64,000 nt of DNA from Streptomyces sp. RPT161 (GTDB lineage: Bacteria > Actinomycetota > Actinomycetes > Streptomycetales > Streptomycetaceae): NCBI RefSeq assembly GCF_027533845.1, contig NZ_JAPZVN010000017.1, forward strand, positions 1 through 64,000. The letters run 5' to 3'. Positions 46,469 to 62,967 of this stretch are shown piece after piece; the first letter of the stretch is position 1; every line of letters begins with the position of its first letter. The notes beneath the pieces were generated by a model that was given only the letters and a program-made list of their open reading frames with translations, did no database searches and was not told the origin of the DNA. A program made the translations under genes and the position numbers.

Positions 46469-46681
46469 ATGCATCATTCACCCTTGGCTGGAATGGCCAT
46501 GGGTGCACACTTGGCGATGGCACCGACAGGGACCGCCACCGCTGCGGTCGCTACCGCCCCGACCACGGTCACCACCGACCAGCGCTTCCACTACGGCGGC
46601 TCCAACCGCGCTGGCCGGGCGTACGGTTCGCGTGGAGCCTGTAACGGCATTCCGTTCGGCAAGGACGCGAACCAGGACTGA
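46469..46681 (+). CDS. 70-residue peptide, possible precursor or carrier
   Basis: ATG 46469 is preceded by AAGGAG at six bases. The first 30 residues are rich in Met/Ala/Thr and mildly hydrophobic but lack the basic start of a signal peptide. The last 40 are polar and glycine/arginine-rich, with one cysteine (C58) in GACNGIPFGKD. I recognise no family. It precedes the thymidylate-synthase-like gene by 205 bases on the same strand, with a small hairpin between. It could be a RiPP-type precursor, a carrier peptide for the FemAB-like and ATP-grasp enzymes, or unrelated. Confidence 0.5.
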   Translation: MHHSPLAGMAMGAHLAMAPTGTATAAVATAPTTVTTDQRFHYGGSNRAGRAYGSRGACNGIPFGKDANQD

Positions 46682-46682
46682 C

Positions 46683-46694
46683 GCCCCAACGGGC
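46683..46694 (+). terminator. Short hairpin after the peptide gene
   Basis: GCCC and GGGC around a CAAC loop, followed by AGCATTTT. The stem is only 4 bp, so it is at best a weak or partial terminator that would lower expression of downstream genes relative to the peptide. Confidence 0.25.
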
Positions 46695-46886
46695 AGCATT
46701 TTCCCTTTCGGTAGCTCCAGGGAATGGTCTGCGTTCCGAACCTGCCCAACGCACTGGGCTGATCCGAAGGTCCGAGCGAGCAGATGAGTCGGAGCCAAGG
46801 CGTTCTGTCCGCTTCGCCGTGCGGCCGCGCAACGGCGAAGCTCCGCGAAATCGCCCTGTCCACACAACGCGTCACGGAAGGTTACG

Positions 46887-47879
46887 ATGACCAACTGCCA
46901 ATCCTTTGCCGACGCTTACACGATCGGCCTGCGCGACATTCTCACCGAAGGGCGGGAGGTTCCCTCGGTGCGTGATCCGCTCTCCAAAGCCTCTGACTTC
47001 GGCCGCAACGACCGGCCGTACCGGGAGCTGATCGCCTACCAGAGAGGAATTCAGGATCCGACCTCCTGTCTGGCGGTAAGTCCGCATCTACCGATCAACC
47101 TCTCCTACTGTTTCGGGCTGCTTGCCTGGTCCCTCGACGGCCGCAACGACGTCGGCACTCCGGCGTACTACCGCCGCGGCGCGCACGAGTACTCCGACGA
47201 CCAGCACACTCTGAGCGGTGCCTTCGGGCACCGGCTGCTGACCGCCAACGGCAACCAGTTGGAGGAAGTGGTCGGCCGCATCGAGCGGGACCCGGCGCAC
47301 CGCCGGGCGTTCGCTCTGGTGTTGGAACCTGAGGACAACTTCCGCCAGTCACGCGAATACCCCTGTGCCGTGGGTGTCCACCTGTTCCTCCGGGACGGCG
47401 CACTGACCTGGCTCACCGTGATGCGGGCGCAGCAGGCGCTGACCGTGCTGCCTTACGATGCGTTCCTTTTCATGGGGATGCAGCAATACGCGGCATCGCT
47501 GCTGAACGTGCCCTGCGGTCCCTACATCCACCAGTCGGGCACCTTCCACTTCTACGAGAACGAGGCCGGCCTGGCCAACAAGATCGTCGAGGAGCCCGCC
47601 CTGGCGGCCAGCCTGCCCGCGTTCCCCGGTACCACGGACGGTGCCCGGGAGACCGCACGCGAACTCATCGACTTCGAACTCCGACTGCGGCAAGCCGCGG
47701 AGGCGGGCGATGTCTCCGTGGTCGACGCCATCGCCCAGCGCAAGGCGAACACCGACTTCGCCGACGTGGCTCGTGCCTGCCTGGCCACTCATGCCTATCG
47801 AAAGCTCGGCGACACGACGACCCTCGTGACCAGCCCGGCATCGAGTGACCGGGTCGCGGACCTGATCGCTGCGATCTGA
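46887..47879 (+). CDS. Thymidylate-synthase-fold pyrimidine nucleotide (hydroxy)methylase, cytosine type
   Basis: 330 residues with the ThyA fold. The phosphate-binding Arg pair is R139-R140 (DPAHRRAFALVLEPED) and the catalytic nucleophile is Cys160 (SREYPC). Arg180 stands in the QRSxD region, here changed to MRAQQA. The specificity loop that reads LPFN in dUMP enzymes is LPYD here (Asp191). Asp at this place is the known mark of dCMP hydroxymethylase and, by family, of CMP hydroxymethylases such as MilA of mildiomycin biosynthesis. It probably installs a one-carbon unit on C5 of a cytosine nucleotide. GGAAGG precedes the ATG. It heads the eight-gene plus-strand locus after the small peptide. 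Confidence 0.82.
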   Translation: MTNCQSFADAYTIGLRDILTEGREVPSVRDPLSKASDFGRNDRPYRELIAYQRGIQDPTSCLAVSPHLPINLSYCFGLLAWSLDGRNDVGTPAYYRRGAHEYSDDQHTLSGAFGHRLLTANGNQLEEVVGRIERDPAHRRAFALVLEPEDNFRQSREYPCAVGVHLFLRDGALTWLTVMRAQQALTVLPYDAFLFMGMQQYAASLLNVPCGPYIHQSGTFHFYENEAGLANKIVEEPALAASLPAFPGTTDGARETARELIDFELRLRQAAEAGDVSVVDAIAQRKANTDFADVARACLATHAYRKLGDTTTLVTSPASSDRVADLIAAI

Positions 47880-47881
47880 TC

Positions 47882-49756
47882 GTGCGCGAAGAACGGGATC
47901 CGCAGGTGAGGATGACGGTTCGCACTCCCCTGGAGCCCCATTGCGCTGACCGGCGGAGCGCACAGCAGGGTCTCACGGAGCGCGTCACACGACGACGGCA
48001 ACTGTTCGAGTCGGCCACAGGACAGCCTGTTTACCACTACCCGGTCATGGCGGCCTTGGTACCGGTTGCCACGAGCAGAGGCGGGGAGATCGCCTACCCG
48101 GGTGACCCGATGTGCCTCTACTCCGCTCTCACGCTCACCATACGGCGGTCGGTCGCACGGATGCAGTCGGGATTACCGGATCAGCCTTCACCCGACGACG
48201 TCTATCCGGACTGGGGGCGCTATCCGGGCGATGAGTACCGCCGCGCGGCGAACGGCCCGCGGGACTCGCTGATCGCCGAGAACCCGACGACGGACGGCCA
48301 CATCTTCGATCCTCGCGTCTGGGACGACGTGGCACGCGACCGGCTGGTCGCGGAACTGCGGGCGCTCCAGCCCAAGGTCGTTCTGCTCAGCGCGGTGTCG
48401 GCGGCCCACCGGTACGCACTTGAGATGGCCGAGCTGGCCAAGGCCCACGTCCCCCACTGTGTCGTGGTCATTGGCGGCAGACACGCTGACGAAACGATTC
48501 GCTACAACCGCACCCTGGGGACCGCCGAGCTGTCGTGGAGTAGCACCGTCGAGGTCATCCGTGACGGCCGTGCCCGTCAGGTTGTCGACTTCGTGGTCGC
48601 CGGCGACGGGGCACCACTGCTCGACCTGCTGCTGCAAGCGGTCTCACTGGTCGCGACGCCCGGCTTCGGTCCCACCCGGGCCGAAGAGGTGCTCGACGCC
48701 ATGAGTTTGTTGGCGTCCGCCGACGAGGATCTGGCCGGATCCGGCACCGTGGTGGCCCTCTGCCCGGACGAGACGCTCGTGCAGCCGGTGCTGGGGCGCC
48801 GCCTCACCTCGACGGAACTGCCCTCTCCCTACGAGGCGTTCTCCATCCGCGCCCGATTCGGCATCTTCACCCAGGCCAACAGCTCAGTGCTCGGCAGTCG
48901 AACGGCGCACATGATGACCCTGGACGCCTGCCCGTTCAAATGCACCTTCTGTTCGGAGAGCATCCAGGTCTCCAACCGGCCCACCCGCTTCGCGGTCAGT
49001 GAGACCCAACACGCCGCCGCCCGAATCCAGCAACTGATCCACTGGGGTGCGGAGGCCGCCTTCTTCGACGACCCCGTCTTCTGGGGCGGGAACTGGAAGG
49101 CGATCACTGATTTCTGCCATGACCTGATGGATCTGTGTGCCGGGCAACCCGCAGATGTCCCCTTCGAGTGGGGCGCGCAACTCACTGTGGACGTCGTCCT
49201 CAACCGAGCAAAGTCCGCGGAGGTCAGCGCCGGGCTGGACCTGATGCGCCGCAGCGGCTGCACGTACATCTACATCGGTATCGAGAGCATGGCCCAACGC
49301 GTGATGAACAACGTGGGCAAGAACCTGCTGCGCCGCAACCCGGAGGCGTGGGTGAGCAAGGTGCGCGAGGCGCTCACCACGATCAGGAGCCATGGCATCC
49401 GGGTCGGCAGCTCGGTGCTCTTCGGGCTGGACGGCGAGGATCGGGAGACGATCAAGGAGACGATCGAGGAGATCGGCCGACTGATAGACGACGAACTACT
49501 CATCATGGCAAGCCCCAACATCCTCACCTACCACCCGGGCACCGCCATAACCGCCGCACACGGGCAGGACCGGCTGGACTACCACTCGCGTAAGGACAAC
49601 CGGCCGCCCTTCACCTACTTCGAGGAGGCATACCCCGAGGTGGTCTCCAAACTGCTGACGGAGGACGACATCTGGTACATCCACGAGGCAGCGGCCAAGA
49701 GGTGGGGCAGCGTCCGCAACAGCGCGGCCGAAGCCCTGACCGGAGTGGTGTCATGA
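47882..49756 (+). CDS. B12-type radical SAM enzyme
   Basis: 624 residues. An N-terminal Rossmann-like region (about 140-250, VVLLSAVSAAHRYALEMAE, then HCVVVIGGRHADE) resembles the cobalamin-binding domain. The radical SAM core follows with C350, C354 and C357 (DACPFKCTFCSES) and a TIM barrel (YIYIGIESMAQRVMNNVGKNL; GIRVGSSVLFGLDGED). The usual DxHxxG cobalamin His motif is not seen, so B12 may bind base-off without His. The GTG at 47882 is 2 bases after the previous stop but has a poor RBS; ATG 47912 is an alternative. Codon 98 (48173-48175) is TTA. Likely reactions are methylation or rearrangement at an unactivated carbon. Confidence 0.88.
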   Translation: MREERDPQVRMTVRTPLEPHCADRRSAQQGLTERVTRRRQLFESATGQPVYHYPVMAALVPVATSRGGEIAYPGDPMCLYSALTLTIRRSVARMQSGLPDQPSPDDVYPDWGRYPGDEYRRAANGPRDSLIAENPTTDGHIFDPRVWDDVARDRLVAELRALQPKVVLLSAVSAAHRYALEMAELAKAHVPHCVVVIGGRHADETIRYNRTLGTAELSWSSTVEVIRDGRARQVVDFVVAGDGAPLLDLLLQAVSLVATPGFGPTRAEEVLDAMSLLASADEDLAGSGTVVALCPDETLVQPVLGRRLTSTELPSPYEAFSIRARFGIFTQANSSVLGSRTAHMMTLDACPFKCTFCSESIQVSNRPTRFAVSETQHAAARIQQLIHWGAEAAFFDDPVFWGGNWKAITDFCHDLMDLCAGQPADVPFEWGAQLTVDVVLNRAKSAEVSAGLDLMRRSGCTYIYIGIESMAQRVMNNVGKNLLRRNPEAWVSKVREALTTIRSHGIRVGSSVLFGLDGEDRETIKETIEEIGRLIDDELLIMASPNILTYHPGTAITAAHGQDRLDYHSRKDNRPPFTYFEEAYPEVVSKLLTEDDIWYIHEAAAKRWGSVRNSAAEALTGVVS

Positions 49757-50472
49757 ATCACGCCATGGAGAACAGGCCCGAGGGAGGGCAGATGCTCGAC
49801 GTCGATCACAAGAGCTACTGGGGAAACTACTACTCCTACTTCCCCGCGCTGTCGCGGTACATCCCGCTGGGAGAGTACGCCCGTCGGGTCCGGCCGCGGG
49901 CCTGCGTACTGGGCATCTCCGACGGCAAGTTCGCCCTGCCCCTCCTCCGCGCCGGATGGGAGGTCGTCGGCGTCGAGACCGACCAACTCTTCCTCAACGG
50001 TGGCGAGTTGGACCTCGTCGACGGCCACCACGACATCGTGGGCCTGTACGACCGCATCGCCGCCGAAGGCTTCGAGGACCGGTGCAAGGTGGTGGAGCAG
50101 GACTACATGACCCTGCCCGCCGAGGCGGACTTCCAACTGGTGATGGGCAGCGGCCTGTGGTCGATGCCGCCCAACCGTCAACACACGCTCCGCGAACTCG
50201 TCCACCATGCGATGAACATGGTCGCACCAGGCGGAATCTTCTTCGGCGAGTATCTCATCGCCCTCAACGACGATGAGAGGCAGTGCGGTTACTACCCGGA
50301 CACCGCGGGCATGCAGGAGATCGTCACCCGCCCGGGCTGGGAACTCTTCGAGAACGCCGACCTCGGTATCCGCGGGGAGAGCCATCTCGGGTACGAGCAA
50401 TGGCACTACCACCGGTACGCGGCAGCCATCGTCCACCGTATGCCGCTGCCCAGCGCGCCCACGCCCAAGTGA
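49753..50472 (+). CDS. Class I SAM-dependent methyltransferase
   Basis: 239 residues. The Rossmann motif is atypical (ACVLGISDGKFALPLLRAGWEVVGVETD) but keeps the acidic residue after strand 2. FQLVMGSGLWSMP and APGGIFFGEYLIA fit motifs IV and V. ATG 49753 overlaps the radical SAM stop (ATGA), so the two are coupled. It could methylate an oxygen or nitrogen of the nucleoside product; glycine-rich motif I is weakened, so a non-methylating role is possible. Confidence 0.75.
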   Translation: MNHAMENRPEGGQMLDVDHKSYWGNYYSYFPALSRYIPLGEYARRVRPRACVLGISDGKFALPLLRAGWEVVGVETDQLFLNGGELDLVDGHHDIVGLYDRIAAEGFEDRCKVVEQDYMTLPAEADFQLVMGSGLWSMPPNRQHTLRELVHHAMNMVAPGGIFFGEYLIALNDDERQCGYYPDTAGMQEIVTRPGWELFENADLGIRGESHLGYEQWHYHRYAAAIVHRMPLPSAPTPK

Positions 50473-50477
50473 CGTCC

Positions 50478-51293
50478 ATGGCCGACACGCATCACAGCGG
50501 CTGTCCCCGTGCACGCGGGGGCAGCCGCCCGGCTGTTGTGGTCACCGATCTCGACTACACCCTGCTGCGGTCGGACGGAACGGTGAGTGAGCGTGCTGTC
50601 GCCGTGCTGCGCGAAGCGGCGGCGGACGGCGCCCGGATCGTCTTCGCGACCGCCCGTCCTGCCTGGTCGGCTCGCACACTCCTGGCCGCCGCCTCCGGCA
50701 TGAACGCCGCGCTGGTGTCGTCCAACGGCGCGGTCGTCAGCGAGTTGGACAGCGGCCGGGTGCTGCGTACCCGTGCGATGGCTCCCTCCACCGCGCGTGC
50801 CGCGATCGCGAGGCTCGGCTGGGACACGTGGGCCGCCGATCGGGAGAACGATCGACTGCTCGGCCCCGGTTGGCCGGACGTCCTGGCCAGTGGTGCGGCG
50901 ACGGCCGAACGTGTCGCCACGCTGCCAGACGGGGCCGCCATCCTGTGCGTGATGGTGCACGGCGGCACCGACGTTCCCCCGGAGGCGCTCGGCAGGAGGG
51001 GCGATGTGGTGTGGACGTCGTCCAGCCCGGGGCTGCTGGAGATCTCCGCGCCGGAGGCGGACAAGGTGTGCGCGGTCCAGTGGATTCTCGACGACGCCGG
51101 TATCGGATGGGGTGAGGTGGTGGCGTTCGGTGACGCACCGAACGACGCGGGGCTGCTCGCGGCCGCGGGGCTCGGAGTCGCGGTGGCCAACGCGTGTCCG
51201 CAGATCCTCGCGCTCGCGGACGCGGTGACCCGGCACCATGACGACGAGGGAGTGGCCAAGTGGCTGGAAGGGGAATGCCTGTGCCCGGCGTAG
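50478..51293 (+). CDS. HAD-superfamily phosphatase (Cof type)
   Basis: 271 residues. Motif I is VVTDLDYTLLRSDG (D24, D26), motif II is IVFATARPAW, and the late motifs are ADKVCAVQWILDDAGI and FGDAPNDAGLLAAAG. A Cof-type cap lies between. Such enzymes dephosphorylate small phospho-compounds. Here a nucleotide from the thymidylate-synthase-like step is a plausible substrate. The start lies 5 bases after the methyltransferase stop, and its end overlaps the next gene by 19 bases. Confidence 0.88.
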   Translation: MADTHHSGCPRARGGSRPAVVVTDLDYTLLRSDGTVSERAVAVLREAAADGARIVFATARPAWSARTLLAAASGMNAALVSSNGAVVSELDSGRVLRTRAMAPSTARAAIARLGWDTWAADRENDRLLGPGWPDVLASGAATAERVATLPDGAAILCVMVHGGTDVPPEALGRRGDVVWTSSSPGLLEISAPEADKVCAVQWILDDAGIGWGEVVAFGDAPNDAGLLAAAGLGVAVANACPQILALADAVTRHHDDEGVAKWLEGECLCPA

Positions 51294-51829
51294 GGGACGT
51301 AGCGCGCCCGCGCAAGGTGTGGATCGTGGGGGGTCCGGGCTGCGGCAAGTCGACACTTGCCAACGCCCTCGCCGAGTCGGCCGGTGTGCGACCGGTCGCC
51401 TTGGACGCGCTCTACTGGGGGCCCGGCTGGACTCCGGTGCCCACGGAGGAGTTCGTCGGCCTGCTGGGGAAGGAACTGGACGCGGAACAGTGGATCGTCG
51501 ACGGCCAGTATCCGGATGCGATCACAGCCTTCGCCGATCGGGCGGACTGCCTGGTCTGGGTCGACCCGCCGTTCGCCGTGGCCTGGTCCCGACTGCTGCG
51601 GCGCACGCTGCGTCGCTGGATACGCCGGGAGCGGCTTTGGGGCGGCACACGCGAGACCCTGTGGAGTGTGATCGGGCCCCGTTCGATTCTCTGGTACGCG
51701 CTCAAGGTCCGCGCGTCCCAACGGCAGGCGAACCAAGAGCTGTTCGACCAGTTGGCGGACAGCGGAGTCCTGCTCCTCCATGCCCGGGGCAACGATGTAC
51801 GGTCGCTGGTCGGACGGATCACGCGTTGA
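51275..51829 (+). CDS. Small P-loop kinase (adenylate-kinase/FlaR-like)
   Basis: About 184 residues. The Walker A motif is GGPGCGKSTLANALAE near residues 19-34, followed by DALYWGPGWTPVP, WIVDGQYPDAI and a DxD-like VWVDPP. This pattern is shared with topology-modulation/FlaR-type P-loop proteins, probable small-molecule kinases. It overlaps the HAD gene by 19 bases, and GGAAGGGG lies right before the ATG. A kinase beside a phosphatase suggests temporary phosphorylation as protection during biosynthesis or resistance, which is inference. Confidence 0.82.
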   Translation: MPVPGVGDVARPRKVWIVGGPGCGKSTLANALAESAGVRPVALDALYWGPGWTPVPTEEFVGLLGKELDAEQWIVDGQYPDAITAFADRADCLVWVDPPFAVAWSRLLRRTLRRWIRRERLWGGTRETLWSVIGPRSILWYALKVRASQRQANQELFDQLADSGVLLLHARGNDVRSLVGRITR

Positions 51830-51893
51830 CCCGGCTCCTCGGCCCTTCGCCGCCTTTCTCGATCGATCTCCGCTATCTCCACAGGAGTTGCCC

Positions 51894-53075: not shown

Positions 53076-53106
53076 GTCGATGAACGCAGATCAATGGGAG
53101 CAAGGC

Positions 53107-54030: not shown

Positions 54031-54175
54031 CGGCGCTCAGTTGCCACTCCTTGTCGCCCGTCCCGCCGCCGGGTTGTTGAAGCACTCGGCGGCCGGGGGC
54101 GACGGCTCCCGGTCGGCGGCGTGGCCGCGTAGCGGCACCGACGCGCCAGGGTGCGCGCTCCGGTAGTGCCAGAGC

Positions 54176-55474
54176 TCAGCGGTGGGCCATTTCCGAGGTC
54201 GCCGCGGAGGCGTCGTCGCCGGTCACTCGACCGTCCTGGTCGGCGGTGAGCAGCTTGCGTAGCGACAACGCCAGCAGCGAGGCTGCCAGACAGCCGGTCA
54301 CGACCAGGCCGACCCAGACCGTACCGCCGCCGGAGCCAAGGAGGGGGCCCGCGGTGACGGGGCCGATCACCCCGCTCACACCGAAGATCATGGAGCTGAT
54401 GGAGTTGTAGCGGCCTCGTAGTTCGTCGGTGGCCAGGGCGTTGGTGACCACCGGCAGCACCGGCGAGAGCATGGTCTCACCGATACCGAAGATCGCGGCG
54501 CAGGCTGTCACCGAGAGCGCGGCCAGTATCCGGTGGTCGGCGGCGACGAAGCCACCCACGCCGAGCGCCAGCCAGGCGATCGCGAACGTCGCGCCCACCG
54601 CGGCGAGTACGGCCGATCGGCTCCGGCGGTGGAGCAGACGGATCACCAGAAGCTGGGAGGCCACTATGACCACCGTGTTCCCCGCCAGCGCCCATGCGAC
54701 GATCCGAGGCCCCACATGCAGGACGCCTACCGAGTAGGCGGAGAATCCCACCTGGATCTGGGCGTAGCCACAGGTGGTGATCACCAGTAGGAACAGCGTC
54801 AGCCGCCGGAACGGACGATCACGTAGGAGGGCGAGATAACCGCCGGAGGAGCGGCCGTCGTCGGCCGCCGCGCTGTCCCGGCCGGAGCCCACCGGATTGC
54901 CGACCCCCGGCAGCGCAAGCAGGACCAGCACCGGCGCGAGGAAGCTCACCGCGTCCAGCACGTAGAGGATCTGGAACGTGACCGGCTGGGATGTGCTGAC
55001 CATCGCGCCCGCCACCAACCCACCCACGCCCAGGCCCAGGTTGAGCAGGGTGAACTGCAGCCCGAAGGTCCGCTGCCGTTCCTCCTCCGCCGTCAGTGAG
55101 GCGAGCATGACGGACTGCCCGGACAGGATCGCCGAGTTGCCGACGGCGATCAGCGACGCCGCCGCGAAGGCCGCCGGGGCGGAGTGGACGAACGCCAGCG
55201 AACCCGTGCCGGCCGCCTCGGCGACCAGGCAGGGCAAGACCACCCGCCGCGCCCCGAACCGGTCGATGAACGCGCCCCCGACCGGCGACAGGACCAGACT
55301 CAGCGCGCCGGACCACCCGATCACCAACCCGGCGAACGTGCCCGACAGGCCGCGCACTTCGGTGAGGTAGATGAACAGGAAGGGCAGCGTCAGGCCACGG
55401 CCCACCGCGGACAGGAGGGTGCCGACCAGCATCCATCGGGCCTCCGGACGCCGGGGCAGGACAGGATGGGGCAT
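54176..55474 (-). CDS. MFS exporter (12-helix)
   Basis: 432 residues with 12 predicted helices. It starts at ATG 55474, with GGAGG nine bases upstream. RWMLVGTLLSAVGRGLTLPFLFIYLTEVRGLSG is the first helix and loop, and GAFIDRFGARRVVLP is motif A. It lies between the two halves of the biosynthetic locus and is the obvious candidate for product export and self-protection. It is convergent with the PhyH gene and divergent from the nitrilase. Confidence 0.88.
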   Translation of the reverse strand: MPHPVLPRRPEARWMLVGTLLSAVGRGLTLPFLFIYLTEVRGLSGTFAGLVIGWSGALSLVLSPVGGAFIDRFGARRVVLPCLVAEAAGTGSLAFVHSAPAAFAAASLIAVGNSAILSGQSVMLASLTAEEERQRTFGLQFTLLNLGLGVGGLVAGAMVSTSQPVTFQILYVLDAVSFLAPVLVLLALPGVGNPVGSGRDSAAADDGRSSGGYLALLRDRPFRRLTLFLLVITTCGYAQIQVGFSAYSVGVLHVGPRIVAWALAGNTVVIVASQLLVIRLLHRRSRSAVLAAVGATFAIAWLALGVGGFVAADHRILAALSVTACAAIFGIGETMLSPVLPVVTNALATDELRGRYNSISSMIFGVSGVIGPVTAGPLLGSGGGTVWVGLVVTGCLAASLLALSLRKLLTADQDGRVTGDDASAATSEMAHR

Positions 55475-55735
55475 GGTCTGAACCTCCGTTGCGAACTGGC
55501 AGGGCGGGAGACCTGGACTTCCCCATGGCCGCTCGGCGATCCGGATGGCCAACAACCCCTCGGCTGAGCGCCGCGCCACCGTGACGCCGTCCCCCTCGGC
55601 GTACGTGTGCCAGAGGCTACAGGAGGCCGAGCGGGGGTGCGGGGCGGGCGGGTCCTTGAGGAGTGGTCCGCGCGCCCGGACGTTGTGGCAGGCTGGGCGC
55701 GGCCCGTCAGTTGGGGAGAGGGAGTGGTGCCCGTC

Positions 55736-56737
55736 ATGAGTCGGCTCACCGTCGCCGTCGTGCAGGCCGGATCCTGCCTGTTCGACACCGCCCGGACCCT
55801 GGCCAAGGCGCAGGCCCTCATCCGGCAGGCCGCGGCGACCGGCGCCCGTGTCGTCGTACTGCCGGAGGCGTTTCTCGGCGGCTACCCCAAGGGCCTGGAC
55901 TTCGGCGTCACCGTCGGCGCGCGGTCCGCGGCCGGGCGCGAGCAGTTCCGGCGCTACTTCGAGTCCGCGATCGACGTACCCGGCCCGGAGAGCGAGGCGT
56001 TGGGCGCGCTGGCCGGGGAGTTGGGCGTCCACCTGGTCGTCGGAGTGGTGGAACGCGGCGGTGGAACGCTGTACTGCACGGCACTGTTCTTCGGCCCTGA
56101 CGGCGCCCTGCTCGGCAAGCACCGCAAGCTGATGCCCACCGGACTGGAGCGGCTGATCTGGGGCTTCGGCGACGGATCCACCATGCCGGCCGTCGACACC
56201 GGCGAGGTCCGGCTGGGCGCCGCGATCTGCTGGGAGAACTACATGCCGCTGTTCCGAACCGCCATGTACTCCAAGGGGGTTGAGCTGTGGTGCGCCCCCA
56301 CGGTCGATGACCGTCCGGTCTGGCAGTCGACCATGACCCATGTGGCGCTGGAGGGCCGCTGCTTCGTGCTCAGCGCCTGCCAGTACCTGCGCAGAGCGGC
56401 GCTGCCGGACGACGTCCACCCCGTCCAGGGCGACGACCCGGACACCGTGCTGATCAACGGGGGAAGCGTCATCATCTCCCCGCTGGGCGAGGTCCTGGCG
56501 GGGCCACTGCGCGACGCCGAGGGCGTGCTCACCGCGGAACTCGATCTGGGCGAACTCGCCCGCGCGCGCTTCGACTTCGACGTCACCGGCCACTACGCCA
56601 GGCCGGATGTCTTCACGCTGCTGGTGGACGACCGCGCGAAACCACCGGCCAGCCGGATGCGGGAGGGCACGCCGTACGACGACGGCGTGCCCTCCAACTC
56701 AGGCCGCGGCCTCGGCGATCCGCTCCACCCGCGGTGA
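55736..56737 (+). CDS. Nitrilase
   Basis: 333 residues of the nitrilase superfamily with the complete triad: E44 (VVLPEAFLGGYPKG), K131 (KHRKLMPTGLERLIW) and C165 (AAICWENYMPLFR). The CWEN setting and FLGGYPKG segment are those of true nitrilases rather than amidases. ATG 55736 follows GGAGAGGGAG. Its 3' end overlaps that of the convergent YbaK gene by 39 bases. It might hydrolyse a nitrile intermediate, or be a bystander; no nitrile-forming enzyme is obvious. Confidence 0.9.
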   Translation: MSRLTVAVVQAGSCLFDTARTLAKAQALIRQAAATGARVVVLPEAFLGGYPKGLDFGVTVGARSAAGREQFRRYFESAIDVPGPESEALGALAGELGVHLVVGVVERGGGTLYCTALFFGPDGALLGKHRKLMPTGLERLIWGFGDGSTMPAVDTGEVRLGAAICWENYMPLFRTAMYSKGVELWCAPTVDDRPVWQSTMTHVALEGRCFVLSACQYLRRAALPDDVHPVQGDDPDTVLINGGSVIISPLGEVLAGPLRDAEGVLTAELDLGELARARFDFDVTGHYARPDVFTLLVDDRAKPPASRMREGTPYDDGVPSNSGRGLGDPLHPR

Positions 56738-57214
56738 CGCCGCCCGCGCATAGTCCCGGGTGTCCAGGGAGAGCGAGACATCCAACTCACCGGCGTTGAA
56801 GAACATCCGTGGATGCTCCAACAGGTCGGGATCTACCACCAACTCCAGCGCCGGATCGAACGAGAACGGCACGATGGAGCCGCTCACCGACCCCGACAGC
56901 CGCTCAGCGGTCTCCCGCTCCACGAAAGAGACGTGCTGCGCCGACCACAACTCCCGGACCCGGCCGAGGTCGACCCGACGGTCACCGGGCACCACCGCGA
57001 GCACGTAGTGCGACTTCTTCTTGGTCAACTTCACCCGCATCACCACGCACTTGGCGGCCTGCGACAGCGGATTGCCGCGTAGTGTGCTGACCACGTCCGT
57101 ACGGCCCTCAGCCTCGTGCTCGATCACCTGGTACGCGGCGCCGTGCTCGTCGAGCAGCGCCACCAGCCGGTCGAAGACACGGGTCTCCTGCTGGACGGGG
57201 ACTTGCTCGGTCAT
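56699..57214 (-). CDS. YbaK/ProX-type aminoacyl-tRNA deacylase
   Basis: 171 residues of the YbaK/aminoacyl-tRNA-editing domain. LLDEHGAAYQVIEHEAEGRT is at the N terminus. The conserved lysine segment is QAAKCVVMRVKLTKKKSHYVLAVVPGDRRVDL, and SGSIVPFSFDPALELVVDPDLL follows. ATG 57214 overlaps the 2OG oxygenase stop (ATGA). Family members hydrolyse mis-charged aminoacyl-tRNA. As the last gene of a biosynthetic operon it could protect translation from a non-standard amino acid or act on an aminoacyl-nucleoside. Confidence 0.88.
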   Translation of the reverse strand: MTEQVPVQQETRVFDRLVALLDEHGAAYQVIEHEAEGRTDVVSTLRGNPLSQAAKCVVMRVKLTKKKSHYVLAVVPGDRRVDLGRVRELWSAQHVSFVERETAERLSGSVSGSIVPFSFDPALELVVDPDLLEHPRMFFNAGELDVSLSLDTRDYARAASPRVERIAEAAA

Positions 57215-58020
57215 CCCCACACCACCGCGTCCTGGAGCCGGTCGTCGCCGAAGCCGATGAAGAATCCCATGGTGAGCCGGTCAGAGCCGTGCACCCGCTC
57301 GATCGAGTGGTAACGGGTGGGGTTTATCAAGTAGACGTCCCCGGCGCTCGGCTTGAACTCATGGCACGGCACACCGTCGACCACGGCCTCGTCATAGCCG
57401 AGCCCGCCGGGGATCTTGTGCGCCTCGTCCGCGGGTTGCCACTCCTTCTGGTAGATCCGCAGCTCACCGCCCTCGTCGCACTCCTGCAGGCACACCACAC
57501 AGCTGAGTTGGCAGGCCAGATCGGCCAGGGCGATCCCGGTGCCCTTGGCGTCGCGCATGATGTTGTCGTTGTGCAGTGGGTTGCGCACCCCGTCCGCGTG
57601 GATGCGTACCACCGACGGCGAGTACAGCCGCCCGTCGGGTTCGCTGGCCGGTTCGACCGAGCCCAGCCCGAAGGCGTCCCGCAGCGCGGTGCGCACCTGG
57701 CCGTCCAGGTCGAACTCCACTGTGTCCAGCAAGGACTTGGCGGCGTCGGCGTCCGCGAAGTAGTCGTCGGTCCGGTCGAGGTACTTGGCCAGGTACGGGC
57801 CCACGGTGGTCAGCGCGCCGTTGACGTACTCCGTGGTGGAGGCGTTGGCGAGCAGCTTGCCGATCCGCTCACGGTTGACGGCGAACGCGTCGGCCGGAAG
57901 CAGGTCGCGCAGCACGACCACGGCGGTCTCGCCCGCCACGAGCTGGCGCAGCAGCGCGGGGTCCGGGCGGGTTGCGGCCGCGTCGACGACGACACGGGTC
58001 CACGTTGTGGAGGACGTCAT
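57211..58020 (-). CDS. Fe(II)/2-oxoglutarate-dependent oxygenase
   Basis: 269 residues. The Fe ligands are H150 and D152 (RNPLHNDN), the distal His is in PTRYHSIERV, and the 2-oxoglutarate Arg is in SDRLTMGFFIG. ATG 58020 is selected because AAGGAG stands nine bases before it; the open frame extends six codons further. It lies in a tight minus-strand operon between the glutaminase and YbaK genes. Hydroxylation or desaturation of an amino acid or the nucleoside is likely. Confidence 0.87.
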   Translation of the reverse strand: MTSSTTWTRVVVDAAATRPDPALLRQLVAGETAVVVLRDLLPADAFAVNRERIGKLLANASTTEYVNGALTTVGPYLAKYLDRTDDYFADADAAKSLLDTVEFDLDGQVRTALRDAFGLGSVEPASEPDGRLYSPSVVRIHADGVRNPLHNDNIMRDAKGTGIALADLACQLSCVVCLQECDEGGELRIYQKEWQPADEAHKIPGGLGYDEAVVDGVPCHEFKPSAGDVYLINPTRYHSIERVHGSDRLTMGFFIGFGDDRLQDAVVWG

Positions 58021-58034
58021 GATGGTGTTCTCCT

Positions 58035-58766
58035 TCACGAGAGTACGGGGTCGGTGACCGGGGCGAGTGGGATCTCCACGACGTGGTCGGGCTTGAGCGG
58101 TTCCCAGTGTTCGGGTGGTGCGAGCGCCGGGACCACCTCTGAGGCGATCACCCGGAACCGCGGGGTACTCAGGGTGTACATACCGAAGTAACGGGGTGCC
58201 TGGTTGCCGGGTGTCGTCCAGTGGATGACATAGGCGTGCTCCGGGTTGACGGCGATGGCGTTGCCCGAACTCCCGCCCGGTGGAAGGGCGGTCAGTCGCT
58301 CCAGCGTCGACGCCTCGTCCAGCCGCCGGACGTCCTTGGGCACGATGTAGTCGAAGTACTCACCCGAGTCGAACTCGGACTCCGGCAGGCCGAGCAACTG
58401 GTACACGGTCGGCAGGAAGCCGTTGTGCATGAAGTACCAAGGGAACTCGCCACCGCGCTCCAGCGGATGGGTGCACTTCAGACCCTGGTTCCTGGCCAGG
58501 GTGGCGTGCCGCGCGTGGATGGCGAGGAACGGTGTCTCCAGGCCCCTGATCGGTGAGTCGTCGTAGCTCTCGCCCAGCGGACGCACGTCGCGGTGCACTG
58601 CCAGCCCGTTCGGGGCATCGGGCTGGCGCCACACCGCGCCCCACCCGTTGGGGTGGACGTTGGTGGGACCGTCGTGGTCGGCGGTGCGACCGCAGCTCAT
58701 GTCCACCGCGGCGTCGAGGATGGCACCGGCGTCGAAGCGGCCGGTGGCCAGGATCAGTCGGCACAT
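58035..58766 (-). CDS. Class II glutamine amidotransferase
   Basis: 243 residues of the Ntn-type class II glutaminase family. ATG 58766 puts Cys at position 2 (MCRLILATG), the catalytic nucleophile after Met removal, which decides the start over the longer frame. FLAIHARHATLARNQGL and WYFMHNGFLPTVYQLL are the glutamine-binding loops. It is alone, without a fused synthetase domain, and sits next to a PP-loop ATPase gene and an ATP-grasp gene, so it probably supplies ammonia to one of them for amide or amidine formation. Confidence 0.88.
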   Translation of the reverse strand: MCRLILATGRFDAGAILDAAVDMSCGRTADHDGPTNVHPNGWGAVWRQPDAPNGLAVHRDVRPLGESYDDSPIRGLETPFLAIHARHATLARNQGLKCTHPLERGGEFPWYFMHNGFLPTVYQLLGLPESEFDSGEYFDYIVPKDVRRLDEASTLERLTALPPGGSSGNAIAVNPEHAYVIHWTTPGNQAPRYFGMYTLSTPRFRVIASEVVPALAPPEHWEPLKPDHVVEIPLAPVTDPVLS

Positions 58767-58768
58767 GG

Positions 58769-60028
58769 TCAACCTCGCAGTCGGGTGGCGACGAGCGGAC
58801 GCAACAGGGCCTGCGCTTCTGAGCAGTTGGCGGCGGTGACCAGGACCCGCCCGACGGAACCGGTGTGCCGGGACAGATCCGAGGCGAGCACTTGGCGGTC
58901 CGCCGCGTCCAGGGCGTCGCCCGGCGGGAACGGCGCCGCGCGCACCACCTCGACGTCATGACCGGCCCGTGCCAGCTCGGCACCGGCGGTCAGCTCCTCC
59001 TGTGAGACGGCCGTGATCTGGCCCACCGCCCGCTCCCGGGCGGGTGGCACGGCGGGTGGCCGCCGGTCGAGGTGCACGGCGAAGACCGCCTCGGCCCAGC
59101 GCGCCCCGGTCGCCCTCTCCACCAGTGCCACCAGAGCGCCTCCGGAGAGCCGGAAACCCATCTCCACGAAGACCGGCCCCGCCTGCCCCTGGATGACATC
59201 GACGTGGAAGGGCCCCTCCTGGTAACCGGCCGCGTGCAGACACTGCTCCGCCAGCTCCAGCAGCCCGCCGTCGGCGGTACTGCCGTGCCGGGCCAGGTGG
59301 CCGACCTCACGGAAGCCGGAAAGGCCCGGCACTCCCGGCACCTCTTCGAGCGTGGTCAACTTCTCGCACACGCTGAGCAGATACGGTCGCCCGTCATGGG
59401 CGACGCCCTGCAGGGACAGCTCGGGCCCCTTGACGAACTCCTCGGCGATGACCGAGACGAACTCCCCGCCGCCGTAGTTGCGCATCCCCTGGATGAGTTC
59501 CACGGCACACTGCCGCTGGTGTGGGTCGTCCACCAGCAGCACGCCGAGGCCGCCGCCACCGTCCGACGGCTTGACCACCTGCGGATAGTCCAACTCCGCG
59601 GCCTCGTCGGTACCGACGAGGGCGAAGCGCGGCTGGTGGACCTCCGTCCCGGACCGCCGCAACGCCTCCCGCTGCTGGTGCTTGTCCAACGGGCGGAACC
59701 GCTCCCCCACGTACGGCCATGGCGCCGCGCGCACCACACGGGCCAGTTCGAAGCCCGCGTACACATACCGCTCGAACCCCGACAGCACCAGCCGCGGTGC
59801 CACCCCCGCCTCGGCGAGTGCCGTCGCCACCTCCGCCGGGTCCTGTGGCTGCTCCACCGGCAGTTCCAGATCGAAGGAGGCCCGGCCGAGCATGCGCCGC
59901 CAACGCAGATAGGCGGGTGTCTCCACCAGTACCGCGCGCATACCGCGGCGTCGCGCGCAGTCAAGGTACGGGTCCAACCCGTCTCTGGTCGCGCCGAGTT
60001 GTACGAAGTCGTCTGCCTGATGCGTCAC
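58769..60028 (-). CDS. ATP-grasp ligase
   Basis: 419 residues. ATP-grasp features are YPQVVKPSDGGGGLGVLLVDD (lysine and glycine loop), VIAEEFVKGPELSLQGV, and the Mg-binding FVEMGFRLSGG near residue 302. The N terminus (VQLGATRDGLDPYLDCARRRGMRAVLVE) is a typical pre-ATP-grasp domain. It would form an amide between a carboxylate (as acyl phosphate) and an amine. The GTG at 60028 is 3 bases after the PP-loop gene stop. Confidence 0.9.
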   Translation of the reverse strand: MTHQADDFVQLGATRDGLDPYLDCARRRGMRAVLVETPAYLRWRRMLGRASFDLELPVEQPQDPAEVATALAEAGVAPRLVLSGFERYVYAGFELARVVRAAPWPYVGERFRPLDKHQQREALRRSGTEVHQPRFALVGTDEAAELDYPQVVKPSDGGGGLGVLLVDDPHQRQCAVELIQGMRNYGGGEFVSVIAEEFVKGPELSLQGVAHDGRPYLLSVCEKLTTLEEVPGVPGLSGFREVGHLARHGSTADGGLLELAEQCLHAAGYQEGPFHVDVIQGQAGPVFVEMGFRLSGGALVALVERATGARWAEAVFAVHLDRRPPAVPPARERAVGQITAVSQEELTAGAELARAGHDVEVVRAAPFPPGDALDAADRQVLASDLSRHTGSVGRVLVTAANCSEAQALLRPLVATRLRG

Positions 60029-60031
60029 GGA

Positions 60032-61543
60032 TCACCGACCGGACAGCAGCTCGGGCACCAGCGGGCCGTCGGCGGAGTGCCGGGTCTGGATGACCTCCTT
60101 GTGCGGGTCGCCCTCAAGGATCGAGTCGATCAACTCGCCGTTGTCCACCGTGGTGGAGGCGATCCGCAACGAGCCCCGGTACAGCACCCGCAGCTGGTCC
60201 ACCGACAGTCCGGTGATCCGCTCCAGCCGGGCCACCAGCGACGGATCCCCCTCGGAGCCGTCGAGCAGCTCGCGGACCGTACCGGCGTCCAGGTCGGGCT
60301 GCTCGGCCCGCAGGTAGGCGTCGAGGTTCGCGCCCTTCTCGGCGAACGGCGCGTACACCATGGCCACCAACTGCTCCTCGGCGAGCCCGTACGCCTCCAT
60401 CGCGTACGCGTCCATGGCGGCCCGCATCCGTTCGGCCGCCCCCTCGTAGCGCTCGCGCATCAGCTGCACGAGTTGCGGCGGGAACTCCTTCTTGTGCATC
60501 AGCGAGATCGCGAAGTCCACGTACTCCGCAAGCCCGTCGGCGTACGTGCGGCCGTAGCGGCGCTCGCACTTCAGGGCGCGCAGGTGCGCCATGAGGGCGG
60601 GGTTGCCGCAGTCGGACTCGGTGAAGCTGAACGCGATGTCGTCGAAGTCGAAGTGCAGGTAGTCGGTGAGCAGTTCCCAGTGGTCACCGGAGGCGTAGGC
60701 GGTGTCGTCGTAGATGGAGAAGAACTGCAACCCCTCGCGCACCTCGTTGGTGATGGCGTGCTCCGCGACGGTGTCGGGGGCACCGGGACCGTGGATGTCG
60801 GTGAAGTACGCCTGCGAGATGTTGTTCAGCGCGGTCAGGAAGCCCTTGAAACCGGTGCGCTGGTCCCGGGGCGGTTGCAGCCCGAACCGCTTGGCGAGCC
60901 GGGACACCCACAGGTAGTAGTCGCGCTGTTCGCGTTGCGAGTCGCCGGTGATGATCAGGTCCACACCACCGTCGTAACCCGCCGCCAGGCCGAAGGAGTT
61001 GACCATGCTCAGGTTGCAGGCGTTGCAGAACGTCGGCCGGGCGTCGGCAGCCGTACGGTGGCCGGTCATCAGGATGTCGGTCCGGTTGCGCCGTACCACG
61101 TCGGCGGTCTGCGGAAGGTCCACGTCGAACCGGCGCACCTGCTGGCCGTCGATCAGCAGCAACTCGCAGTCGGGGTCCTCAGCCAGCCGCAGCGCGGAGT
61201 ACACCCGGTCGATGTTCTCCATCACCGCCCGCGGCATCCCGGCGTGCCGGTTGGTGGCCACCCGCATCCGGAAGGTCGAGCCGTGGATCCGGAACAGTAT
61301 GAGCTGCATGGCCCGCACGAAGGTCAAGGTGTATGAGCTGTCCTTGCCTCCGCCGTAGGCCACCAGCACCACGCTGCGGTTGAGCCCGCGCTTGGCGGGC
61401 AGCGCGTTGTGCAGCCGCATGGCGCAGCGCACGGCACCCTCGTAGTTCTCGGCGGAGAGTACGGCGCGTAACTCCTGCAGCGCACTCGCACGTAGTTCTT
61501 CGACATCCACCGCTGTGCTGCGCGCTGGCGCGAGTGAGGACAT
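60032..61543 (-). CDS. PP-loop (N-type) ATP pyrophosphatase
   Basis: 503 residues. The PP-loop is AYGGGKDSSYTL (GGGKDS at 64-69). A CxxC pair, C173 and C176 (TFCNACNLSM), follows, as in some amidotransferases and thiolation enzymes of this fold. The rest, about 280 residues, is unfamiliar and helical. ATG 61543 has AAGGAG six bases upstream, and codon 25 (61471-61469) is TTA. It is the first gene of the five-gene minus-strand operon. With the class II glutaminase downstream it could act as a split asparagine-synthetase-like amidating system. Confidence 0.78.
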   Translation of the reverse strand: MSSLAPARSTAVDVEELRASALQELRAVLSAENYEGAVRCAMRLHNALPAKRGLNRSVVLVAYGGGKDSSYTLTFVRAMQLILFRIHGSTFRMRVATNRHAGMPRAVMENIDRVYSALRLAEDPDCELLLIDGQQVRRFDVDLPQTADVVRRNRTDILMTGHRTAADARPTFCNACNLSMVNSFGLAAGYDGGVDLIITGDSQREQRDYYLWVSRLAKRFGLQPPRDQRTGFKGFLTALNNISQAYFTDIHGPGAPDTVAEHAITNEVREGLQFFSIYDDTAYASGDHWELLTDYLHFDFDDIAFSFTESDCGNPALMAHLRALKCERRYGRTYADGLAEYVDFAISLMHKKEFPPQLVQLMRERYEGAAERMRAAMDAYAMEAYGLAEEQLVAMVYAPFAEKGANLDAYLRAEQPDLDAGTVRELLDGSEGDPSLVARLERITGLSVDQLRVLYRGSLRIASTTVDNGELIDSILEGDPHKEVIQTRHSADGPLVPELLSGR

Positions 61544-61935
61544 GCTGAACTCCTTGTCGGGCAACGTGTGATGGTGTACGAACCGCTCACGGGCACGCTG
61601 AAGCGTCCGCCGCGGAAATGCGCGCCGCGCGGCGTTGCGCGATGCGGCGGTACCTGCCCTCTTTGACCCACCGGATCAGGGCACTACCGCGAAAGAAAAG
61701 GAGGACGCGTTTCTTCGGACGGCTACGGAACTACCAGCGGAAATTTCCGCAGCGCCGTACGCGAGAAAGACACCGCATGTGCTGTGAACCCCCGTCAGGA
61801 ATTACCTGCCCCTTTGACCGCCATGGCGTGGCCCTCAATGTCCAGTAGCAGAGGCAGCGGTGTCAACCGCCCACTCCTGGATTGGCCGATATCCCCCTGG
61901 CCAAATCGGACTGTTTCACTGAAACCGCAGAGCGG
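61544..61935. other. Intergenic region upstream of the PP-loop operon
   Basis: About 390 bases without a gene. It contains AAAGGAGG at about 61697-61704 with no start codon behind it, and a palindrome at 61737-61750. Confidence 0.5.
61737..61750. promoter_or_regulatory. Perfect palindrome upstream of the minus-strand operon
   Basis: GCGGAAATTTCCGC is a perfect 14-bp palindrome about 195 bases before the PP-loop gene. It is a candidate operator for the operon; no regulator gene lies inside the locus. Confidence 0.4.
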
Positions 61936-62862: not shown

Positions 62863-62918
62863 GAAGCCATGCTAATCCCCGGCCTTAACGAATCCTCGCT
62901 GGCCGCTGCCAGCCGTCA

Positions 62919-62937: not shown

Positions 62938-62967
62938 CATGTGACGTGTGCTCAGGAAGGTCGGTGT

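What the first reader, a model, noticed from the sequence alone, without database searches (positions are those of the whole stretch)
46469..61543. Candidate undescribed nucleoside or nucleoside-peptide gene cluster
About 15 genes in two operons combine a cytosine-type ThyA enzyme, B12-type radical SAM, methyltransferase, phosphatase, kinase, FemAB-like transferase, two 2OG-type oxygenases, PP-loop ATPase, ATP-grasp ligase, class II glutaminase, YbaK deacylase, nitrilase and an MFS exporter. I cannot match this set to mildiomycin, bacimethrin, polyoxin/nikkomycin, blasticidin or gougerotin as I know them. The gene order, overlaps and shared theme support one pathway.
Basis: inference. Interest (0 to 1): 0.85.

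Follow-up and report, generated by a model that had tools for sequence, protein, structure and literature searches.

The report
Two adjacent, separate small-molecule gene clusters
What looked like one new nucleoside-antibiotic gene cluster in an actinomycete is most likely two unrelated small clusters side by side: a nucleotide-type one built round an altered thymidylate-synthase relative and a vitamin-B12 radical enzyme, and an amino-acid-type one that is also found alone in Pantoea and related bacteria and may match a Pantoea antibiotic of unknown structure.

Summary
The 14 genes are real, but they form two clusters. Cluster A (46,887-55,474: ThyA-like, B12-radical SAM, methyltransferase-like, HAD phosphatase, P-loop kinase, FemAB-like, PhyH, MFS) occurs without B in four relatives. 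Cluster B (56,699-63,912: PP-loop, ATP-grasp, class II glutaminase, 2OG oxygenase, YbaK, plus LysR and EamA exporter outside the given span) occurs, in the held DNA, without A in 25 of 46 named loci, 21 of them Enterobacterales. Of six selected genomes three have only A and three only B; of the genomes checked only this one has both. Cluster A still looks nucleotide-directed, but its ThyA-like protein keeps the cytosine-type Asp and the nucleophilic Cys while losing the catalytic Glu and another Asp (8 of 8 homologues), so ordinary hydroxymethylation is doubtful. Cluster B most likely makes a non-protein amino acid or dipeptide, with YbaK as tRNA-editing self-protection. Its Enterobacterales form has six genes in about 5.7 kb, as printed for the Pantoea PNP-2 cluster; identity is unproven. 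Its PP-loop enzyme has no family match, has three invariant cysteines and resembles sugar amidotransferases and tRNA thiolases in fold.

The parts
46887..47879 (+). Cluster A: ThyA-like protein (330 aa), relative of MilA; Cys160, Asp191, Ala181 kept, Arg139 for MilA Lys133; TS Glu58- and Asp169-equivalents are Leu78 and Gln183
47882..49756 (+). Cluster A: B12-binding radical SAM protein (624 aa; CxxxCxxC seen in the sequence)
   Evidence: 71-77% identical copies beside ThyA in four loci
49702..50472 (+). Cluster A: conserved SAM-methyltransferase-like protein (start at 49702 or 49753)
   Evidence: (weak)
50469..51293 (+). Cluster A: HAD-IIB (Cof-type) phosphatase
51275..51829 (+). Cluster A: small P-loop kinase-like protein (Walker A GGPGCGKST); hit in L074 and L076, none in L073
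51894..53075 (+). Cluster A: FemAB-like/GNAT-type transferase
53080..54030 (+). Cluster A: PhyH-type Fe(II)/2OG oxygenase (HFD...H seen in the sequence)
54176..55474 (-). Cluster A (probable): MFS exporter; 67% identical copy beside ThyA in L076
55736..56737 (+). Nitrilase-type hydrolase, convergent with cluster B; membership uncertain (beside B in L004 and L029 and in the variant L009; no hit in L005, L006 or the 21 Enterobacterales loci)
56699..57220 (-). Cluster B: YbaK-type aminoacyl-tRNA deacylase, extra paralogue
57211..58038 (-). Cluster B: WelO5-type Fe(II)/2OG oxygenase with H156-N157-D158...H244 (alignment numbering), i.e. hydroxylase-type ligands
58035..58766 (-). Cluster B: class II (Ntn) glutaminase; ATG at 58766 puts a Cys at position 2
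58769..60028 (-). Cluster B: ATP-grasp, L-amino-acid-ligase type
60032..61564 (-). Cluster B: PP-loop ATP pyrophosphatase of an unnamed family; invariant C180, C183, C319 (other possible start: ATG at 61543)
61936..62862 (-). Cluster B: LysR regulator (hit beside B in the four other streptomycete full-cassette loci)
62968..63912 (+).

Best explanation
Two independent small-molecule clusters lie side by side. (A) 46,887-55,474. Shown: a conserved set of ThyA-like, B12-radical SAM, methyltransferase-like, HAD phosphatase and FemAB-like genes, with kinase, PhyH oxygenase and MFS in some copies. Inferred: a cytidylate-type nucleotide is bound and modified by the ThyA-like protein and the B12 enzyme, tailored by methyltransferase and oxygenase, dephosphorylated by the HAD enzyme, acylated or aminoacylated by the FemAB-like protein and exported; because the ThyA-like family has lost the catalytic Glu and an active-site Asp, its reaction is probably not standard folate-dependent hydroxymethylation. 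(B) 56,699-63,912. Shown: a conserved PP-loop/ATP-grasp/glutaminase/2OG-oxygenase/YbaK/EamA cassette shared by streptomycetes and Enterobacterales. Inferred: the 2OG enzyme hydroxylates an amino acid, the PP-loop enzyme activates a carboxylate or amide with ATP for attack by glutaminase-derived ammonia (amide or amidine), the ATP-grasp enzyme couples the amino acid to a second one, EamA exports the product, and YbaK clears tRNAs mischarged with it in the producer. In Pantoea this cassette is probably PNP-2.
For: Separation: 25 of 46 named PP-loop loci hold the five cassette genes in order on one strand, with an EamA match and no ThyA, radical SAM, methyltransferase, kinase, FemAB or PhyH match over 60 bits in the held DNA; 4 loci hold A genes without B genes. 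Whole genomes: three A-only, three B-only, only G000 both, of seven asked. ThyA residues: with MilA roles from PMC5175136 (abstract and passages). Cluster B: ATP-grasp nearest solved relatives include L-amino acid ligase BL00235 (2.5e-20) and BacD (1.2e-8); oxygenase ligands HND...H in 14 of 14 aligned; a Lys invariant in 14 of 14 YbaKs and a separate grouping of cluster YbaKs, with 4 tRNA_edit matches in this genome against 2 each in G002 and G018, which lack B; best full-length structural match of the PP-loop model is N-acetyl sugar amidotransferase 8wex, Z 13.6, next row 10.7. PNP-2: six genes, 5.7 kb (PMC7744662 passages) against six genes, median 5,719 bp, in 21 Enterobacterales loci.
Against: No product or enzyme activity is known for either cluster. 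Flanks of the 46 loci are at most 10 kb, so a distant cluster A could be missed; whole genomes were checked for only three of the 25 B loci, and for L073 only the plasmid, not the chromosome. Weak HAD-type matches (23-26%) do occur in four Enterobacterales loci. The glutaminase is not found with the PP-loop gene outside the full cassettes and short fetches of the same loci, so ammonia transfer is not secured; the three cysteines look more like the tRNA-thiolase pattern than the amidotransferase one, and the model is unsure just before C319 (residues 313-318, pLDDT under 50). Nothing ties YbaK to a particular amino acid. The PNP-2 match rests on gene number and length alone; its paper and record were not held.
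Confidence: 0.72

Rival explanations
1. One pathway: in this strain the two operons jointly make a nucleoside-peptide or nucleoside-amino-acid antibiotic, B supplying the amino acid that FemAB or ATP-grasp attaches to the nucleoside of A.
For: Adjacency in one contig with only the nitrilase gene between; lower G+C in both parts than in the DNA at 17-31 kb; FemAB-like and ATP-grasp enzymes could join the two products.
Against: A and B are separate in the relatives found; each has its own exporter; B is found in 21 Enterobacterales loci without A in the held DNA.
Confidence: 0.07
2. The B PP-loop enzyme is a [4Fe-4S] sulfurtransferase that makes a thioamide or thiocarboxylate amino acid, not an amidotransferase.
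For: Exactly three cysteines are invariant in 25 of 25 (C180, C183, C319), with CxxC after the PP-loop as in E. coli TtcA and in NcsA, where three Cys bind the cluster (PMC10067955 passages); TtuA and NcsA chains are among Foldseek's top rows, though at E 5e-3 or worse; hhalign gives TtcA 59% probability against GMP synthetase 8% and NAD synthetase 1%. NCBIfam's nearest model for YbaK is a Cys-tRNA(Pro) deacylase (under its cut-off), which would suit a sulfur amino acid.
Against: Best structural match is an amidotransferase (Z 13.6; NcsA 10.4); a glutaminase is in the cassette; hhalign covered only the PP-loop stretch of TtcA; the CxxC stretch against TtcA scored only 2.3 s.d. over shuffles (37 of 2,000 shuffles reached it) in a gapped alignment.
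Confidence: 0.35
3. Cluster A is simply a 5-hydroxymethylcytosine nucleoside cluster with a MilA-type CMP hydroxymethylase.
For: Nearest solved relatives are the two MilA sequences (E 1.6e-22 and 1.7e-22), far ahead of thymidylate synthases (4e-7); Asp186- and Ala176-equivalents kept.
Against: MilA Glu68 (catalytic, PMC5175136) is Leu and the TS Asp169 position is Gln in 8 of 8; Lys133 is Arg; none of the cluster-A proteins scanned matched a nucleosidase family, as a MilB-type step would ask (MilB's role recalled).
Confidence: 0.25
4. The B-cluster YbaK is a biosynthetic enzyme (for example it releases an aminoacyl group from tRNA for the ATP-grasp step) and not self-protection.
For: It is the last gene of the biosynthetic run in the window and is in 25 of 25 full cassettes (by selection).
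Against: Its nearest named family is a trans-editing deacylase; the precedent CtdA is a standalone editing protein that protects from canavanine (PMC10018355 abstract).
Confidence: 0.2

Closest known systems
Mildiomycin / bacimethrin CMP hydroxymethylases (MilA, BcmA)
   Same: ThyA fold family, nucleophilic Cys, cytosine-type Asp, ribose-type Ala
   Different: Glu68 -> Leu, TS-Asp169 position -> Gln, Lys133 -> Arg; partner genes differ (B12 radical SAM, FemAB, PhyH; comparison with the mildiomycin set from memory)
Pantoea PNP-2 antibiotic cluster (P. agglomerans TX10, Robinson 2020, GenBank MN329808)
   Same: Pantoea, six genes, 5.7 kb, as the Enterobacterales form of cluster B
   Different: Sequence not available here, so identity is untested; the streptomycete form adds LysR and sometimes a nitrilase
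Bacilysin-type dipeptide pathways (BacD) and L-amino acid ligases
   Same: ATP-grasp ligase of L-amino-acid-ligase type beside enzymes that may make an unusual amino acid
   Different: PP-loop, glutaminase, 2OG oxygenase and YbaK in place of anticapsin genes (bacilysin set from memory)
N-acetyl sugar amidotransferase (LpNASAT 8WEX, WbpG)
   Same: PP-loop fold, full-length structural match Z 13.6, ammonia-dependent amidotransfer logic
   Different: No zinc tetracysteine; three invariant cysteines after the PP-loop instead; no PDB sequence match
TtcA/TtuA/NcsA tRNA thiolases
   Same: CxxC after the PP-loop plus a later third Cys; SGGKDS/GGGKDS loop
   Different: Longer (510 aa), spacing from CxxC to the third Cys 136 against 88 in NcsA, clusters with amino-acid enzymes
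WelO5 carrier-independent halogenase
   Same: Pfam WelO5 match over most of the protein
   Different: Iron-ligand Asp present (HND), so hydroxylase type
CtdA canavanyl-tRNA deacylase
   Same: Standalone editing protein against a non-protein amino acid
   Different: Of another protein family (recalled); in its abstract a protection of bacteria on canavanine-making plants, not part of a biosynthetic cluster

Membership tests
MilA-type CMP hydroxymethylase | Nucleophilic Cys (MilA Cys155) | tested here: met
   Cys160, 8 of 8
MilA-type CMP hydroxymethylase | Catalytic Glu (MilA Glu68, E. coli TS Glu58) | tested here: not met
   Leu78 in 8 of 8; same placement against MilA and E. coli ThyA (hhalign 91%, E 9e-7)
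MilA-type CMP hydroxymethylase | Asp186 for cytosine | tested here: met
   Asp191, 8 of 8
MilA-type CMP hydroxymethylase | Ala176 and Lys133 for ribose | tested here: inconclusive
   Ala181 kept, Lys133 replaced by Arg139
MilA-type CMP hydroxymethylase | Folate-dependent hydroxymethylation of CMP | not testable with these tools
   needs enzyme assay
WelO5-type halogenase | Iron-ligand Asp replaced by Gly (recalled motif) | tested here: not met
   H156-N157-D158 in 14 of 14
L-amino acid ligase (ATP-grasp) | Sequence relation to BL00235/BacD | tested here: met
   E 2.5e-20 to 3vot, 1.2e-8 to BacD; other ATP-grasp enzymes appear at 1.4e-9 and weaker
L-amino acid ligase (ATP-grasp) | Dipeptide formation | not testable with these tools
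   needs enzyme assay
N-acetyl sugar amidotransferase (NASAT) | PP-loop Rossmann-like fold over the whole protein | tested here: met
   Z 13.6, 299 aligned, rmsd 5.2; a shared fold shows no function
N-acetyl sugar amidotransferase (NASAT) | Tetracysteine zinc site CXXC...CXXC | tested here: not met
   only three invariant Cys, all after the PP-loop (motif from PMC10607449 passages)
TtcA/TtuA/NcsA thiolases | Three conserved Cys (CxxC + C) binding [4Fe-4S] | tested here: inconclusive
   pattern present in 25 of 25; cluster binding and 3D placement not tested
YbaK/ProXp trans-editing deacylases | tRNA_edit domain above the curated cut-off with a conserved Lys | tested here: met
   79.1 bits against 25.5; Lys57 in 14 of 14; the catalytic role of the Lys is recalled
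PNP-2 cluster | Six genes in 5.7 kb in Pantoea | tested here: met
   21 Enterobacterales loci, 5,653-6,002 bp, median 5,719 (PMC7744662 passages)
PNP-2 cluster | Sequence identity with GenBank MN329808 | not testable with these tools
   record and paper not held

The most novel reading that the evidence does not exclude
Cluster B encodes a new type of amino-acid antimetabolite pathway, shared between Actinomycetota and Enterobacterales by horizontal transfer, in which an unnamed three-cysteine PP-loop enzyme family rewrites an amino acid's carboxamide or carboxylate (to amidine or thioamide) and the producer protects its own translation with a dedicated tRNA-editing enzyme; the same PP-loop family works with glutamate mutase and an AsnA-type enzyme in other actinomycetes and in methanotrophs to make related products. 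Independently, cluster A holds a ThyA-like family that keeps nucleotide-binding residues but has lost the catalytic Glu and an active-site Asp, and so does folate-free chemistry on a cytidylate.
Probability: 0.35. Interest if true: 0.75.

Novelty: new variant of a known kind. Interest (0 to 1): 0.55.

Why it matters
Splitting the span gives two testable units in place of one puzzling one. Cluster B could link an orphan Pantoea antibiotic to streptomycetes, offer a case of tRNA editing as self-resistance inside a biosynthetic operon, and give a setting for an uncharacterised PP-loop family. Cluster A pairs a thymidylate-synthase relative without the usual catalytic residues with a B12-radical SAM enzyme; the two paper searches made for such a combination (open-licence papers only, listings plus passages of two papers) showed no precedent.

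Tried and rejected
Single nucleoside-peptide pathway: rejected by separate occurrence. WelO5-type halogenation: rejected, iron-ligand Asp is present. Riboswitch control of cluster A: no riboswitch match in the window or L073-L076 at the gathering thresholds; the only two matches are ASpks antisense RNAs over the large ORF at 17-31 kb. Anti-phage function: one generic 2OG match (3.5e-08) among 8 proteins scanned. E. coli genomes with cluster B: no match to one Pantoea dispersa ATP-grasp gene in distant mode. Oxetanocin-type OxsB: the only chain listed for the cluster-A radical SAM protein at E 0.01 or better was 9ccb; this does not prove difference. Structure of the ThyA-like protein from a single sequence: useless, pLDDT 35. 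hhalign of the PP-loop profile with E. coli TtcA and GuaA aligned only the PP-loop stretch; with NadE a chance stretch elsewhere. PDB profile search with the PP-loop family: no match to E 1. WbuX (TIGR03573) in the own genome: none; its controls rang in 4 of 14, none over the cut-off. Paper searches that led nowhere: 0 papers each; listing only; PMC12691670 (4'-thiothymidine, passages) and PMC4010436 (PNP-1, passages) describe other gene sets; the cluster 675 of PMC7744662 has an RND pump gene and is another set. My own gene caller missed the PP-loop gene in 9 of 21 loci, the HAD gene of the window and the cluster in L082; there I relied on tblastn positions. A first count of cassette spans ended the EamA gene too early in several loci and was replaced, whose values for L010 (5,720) and L041 may run past the true stop. 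The PP-loop alignment A1 has 25 rows, the window and 24 of the 46 loci; L011 was dropped because its stretch held a stop. The YbaK tree used 14 cluster copies and 12 fetched loci, one of which (L128) is the window copy again and one (L132) a short, badly placed piece.


Full report
What is there. The span 46,469-61,543 holds 14 genes. The + run is ThyA-like (46,887), B12-radical SAM (47,882), methyltransferase-like (49,702), HAD-IIB phosphatase (50,469), small P-loop kinase (51,275), FemAB-like (51,894) and PhyH oxygenase (53,080). Then come an MFS gene on the - strand (to 54,176), a nitrilase gene on the + strand (55,736-56,737) and the - run, read from 61,564 down: PP-loop, ATP-grasp, class II glutaminase, WelO5-type oxygenase, YbaK. 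The methyltransferase and glutaminase labels rest on weak matches, and the PP-loop protein has no family match.

Two clusters, not one. A scan of named genomes for the PP-loop protein gave 46 loci. In 25 of these 46 the five genes PP-loop, ATP-grasp, glutaminase, oxygenase and YbaK follow each other on one strand, with an EamA match nearby, and none of ThyA, radical SAM, methyltransferase, kinase, FemAB or PhyH matches at over 60 bits in the held DNA, at most 10 kb each side; four of them (L013, L015, L025, L047) have a remote HAD match of 23-26%, which I take as unrelated. Four of the 25 are streptomycetes (L004, L005, L006, L029) and have a LysR match too; 21 are Pantoea, Erwinia, Enterobacter, Hafnia and one unnamed Enterobacterales MAG. 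Of the other 21 loci some are cut by contig ends (for example L008, L027), one has four of the five genes (L045), one is a variant (L009), and most of the rest hold the PP-loop gene in other settings. Conversely, the radical SAM protein has close relatives (71-77%) in L073 (plasmid of Streptomyces sp. NBC_01591), L074, L075 and L076. There it stands beside ThyA and the methyltransferase in 4 of 4, beside HAD and FemAB in 3 of the 3 that are not cut by a contig end, and with kinase and PhyH in 2 of those 3. None of the four holds a cluster-B match in the held DNA; for L073 only the plasmid could be looked at, where the PP-loop protein has no match either. A check in whole genomes, chosen because they carry one or the other, shows radical SAM and the close ThyA (81-87%) in G002, G219 and G018 but no PP-loop gene, and the PP-loop gene in G017, G028 and G114 but no radical SAM, and of ThyA only a 29% relative in G114. 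Of these seven genomes only the window's own has both. Broader sampling: PP-loop matches in 10 of 297 and radical SAM matches in 11 of 394 genomes of the family, the own genome counted in both, and no other genome in both lists.

Borders. The MFS gene goes with cluster A: L076 carries a 67% identical MFS beside ThyA, and L073 and L074 have other MFS genes near by. The nitrilase gene is beside cluster B in L004 and L029 and within a variant in L009, but has no match in L005, L006 or the Enterobacterales loci. It was found in 8 of 121 genomes: beside B in the own genome, G017 and G028, about 14 kb from a PP-loop gene in G026 and about 200 kb away in G117 (for the PP-loop places); for the other three I did not look for a PP-loop gene. 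I leave its membership open.

Cluster A. The ThyA-like protein is nearest to MilA among solved chains (E 1.6e-22). Mapped on E. coli thymidylate synthase (hhalign 91%, E 9e-7) and on MilA (residue roles from PMC5175136, abstract and passages), it keeps the nucleophile (Cys160), Arg180, His221 and Tyr223, has the cytosine-type Asp191 and the ribose-type Ala181, but Arg139 in place of MilA Lys133. The catalytic Glu (TS Glu58, MilA Glu68) is Leu78, and the TS Asp169 position, still Asp in MilA, is Gln183; both changes are in 8 of 8 homologues, five from the window and cluster-A loci and three from other settings. That TS Asp169 serves folate binding is recalled. The same ThyA subfamily (58-67%) occurs with other partners in L116-L118, where no other cluster-A protein matched. 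The radical SAM protein has more distant relatives (44-47%) in eight loci, L077-L084; in seven of the eight, genes near by share BLAST matches with an L078 gene that Pfam reads as NRPS (L082 was not called properly), and L078 also has a P450 and a class I/II aminotransferase. No Rfam riboswitch was found.

Cluster B. The ATP-grasp protein is of the L-amino-acid-ligase type. The oxygenase is related to WelO5 but has the iron-ligand Asp in 14 of 14, so it should hydroxylate. The glutaminase has an invariant Cys at its start and further invariant motifs in 15 of 15. YbaK is an added paralogue: 4 tRNA_edit matches in this genome against 2 each in G002 and G018, which lack B, and the cluster copies stand apart from the other copies in a tree (support 0.97), but for one short, badly placed fragment (L132, support 0.47). 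A standalone editing protein as protection from a non-protein amino acid has a precedent in CtdA (PMC10018355, abstract). EamA exporters are typical of amino acid export (recalled). Together this points to an amino acid or dipeptide antimetabolite that can be charged to tRNA; the amino acid is unknown.

The PP-loop enzyme. 25 aligned members (42-85% identity to the window copy) share GGGKDS and exactly three invariant cysteines. The AlphaFold model is good (mean pLDDT 84.8) but weak at residues 313-318, just before C319. Foldseek gives no match below 1e-3; its first rows are TtuA, FAD synthase and NcsA. VIA-align, a second look at Foldseek's list, puts N-acetyl sugar amidotransferase first (Z 13.6, rmsd 5.2, 299 aligned; next 10.7) and NcsA at 10.4. 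NASAT has a zinc tetracysteine ahead of its PP-loop (PMC10607449 passages), absent here; NcsA has CxxC plus one Cys that hold a [4Fe-4S] cluster (PMC10067955 passages), which is the pattern here, though with longer spacing (136 against 88 residues to the third Cys). Nitrogen transfer and sulfur transfer both stay open; I lean to nitrogen because of the glutaminase. In other loci the same family sits with glutamate mutase: the MutE family is in 10 of 21 loci looked at, among them Nocardia, Streptomyces hygroscopicus, Methylobacter and Salinisphaera, with an AsnA/class II synthetase-like protein and, in some, a luciferase-type monooxygenase or ketopantoate enzymes (Pfam on L036, L037, L003 and L043 only). 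This recalls alahopcin, a cyclic-hydroxamate dipeptide antibiotic (PMC9712658 passages), whose amino acid could come from 3-methylaspartate; that link is my inference.

Known product? PMC7744662 (passages only) states that the PNP-2 cluster of Pantoea agglomerans TX10 has six genes in 5.7 kb, that PNP-2 acts on several genera of Enterobacteriaceae and Erwiniaceae and on S. [quoted passage not shown] coli. The cassette from PP-loop start to EamA stop in 21 Enterobacterales loci is six genes, median 5,719 bp (range 5,653-6,002). I think cluster B is more likely than not PNP-2, but neither the paper nor the record was held, so this is a match of size and gene number only. For cluster A, two full-text searches (8 papers listed; 5 listed; passages of PMC12691670 and PMC5175136 opened) showed no described cluster of this make-up; they cover open-licence papers only.

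Verdict. Cluster A is a nucleotide-type cluster with an unusual ThyA-like enzyme, undescribed as far as these searches go; cluster B is a wide-spread amino-acid-type cassette, perhaps with a known antibiotic activity, whose key enzyme is unnamed.

Noticed in passing
L036, L037, L003, L033, L043 (MutE family in 10 of 21 loci): The PP-loop family sits in a second conserved setting with glutamate mutase subunits (MutE, B12-binding small subunit), an AsnA/class II aaRS-like protein and, in some, ATP-grasp, luciferase-type monooxygenase, PanB or PanE; possibly alahopcin-like dipeptides.
   Followed up: partly
L073:10297-13569, L075:3922-6376: ECF-type transporter genes (weak S-component match, CbiQ and ATPase in L075; weak S-component match and ATPase in L073) lie near and divergent to the ThyA-like gene in two of four cluster-A loci, with a 99-aa related piece in L074; substrate unknown.
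   Followed up: partly
L116:6851-10468, L117:9490-10482, L118:9503-10480: Relatives of the ThyA-like protein (58-67%) with the same lost catalytic residues occur with other genes (methyltransferase and short-chain dehydrogenase in L116; sugar enzymes, aminotransferase, NRPS-type module, ABC transporter and a different B12-radical SAM in L118).
   Followed up: partly
L077-L084: The cluster-A radical SAM protein has 44-47% relatives in NRPS settings; in L078 with P450 and aminotransferase.
   Followed up: partly
window 17408-31258: A single ORF of 4,616 aa on the - strand, probably a large megasynthase (not scanned); two Rfam ASpks antisense-RNA matches (21872-21946, 27113-27181) lie over it and may only reflect conserved coding sequence.
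   Followed up: no
G018:C44:53499-54071 and G114:C1:3584064-3584585: More distant ThyA/MilA-like genes (31% and 29%) elsewhere in a cluster-A genome and a cluster-B genome; such distant relatives are common in the order (36 of 391 genomes have some ThyA match, most at about 30%).
   Followed up: no
L006:13511-14863: The oxygenase match covers only 218 residues and its open frame runs on into the YbaK gene; possible frameshift or sequencing error in that streptomycete copy.
   Followed up: no
L009:7893-12421: Variant setting in Streptomyces longispororuber: PP-loop, ATP-grasp, nitrilase (79% identical) and YbaK without a glutaminase or oxygenase match.
   Followed up: partly
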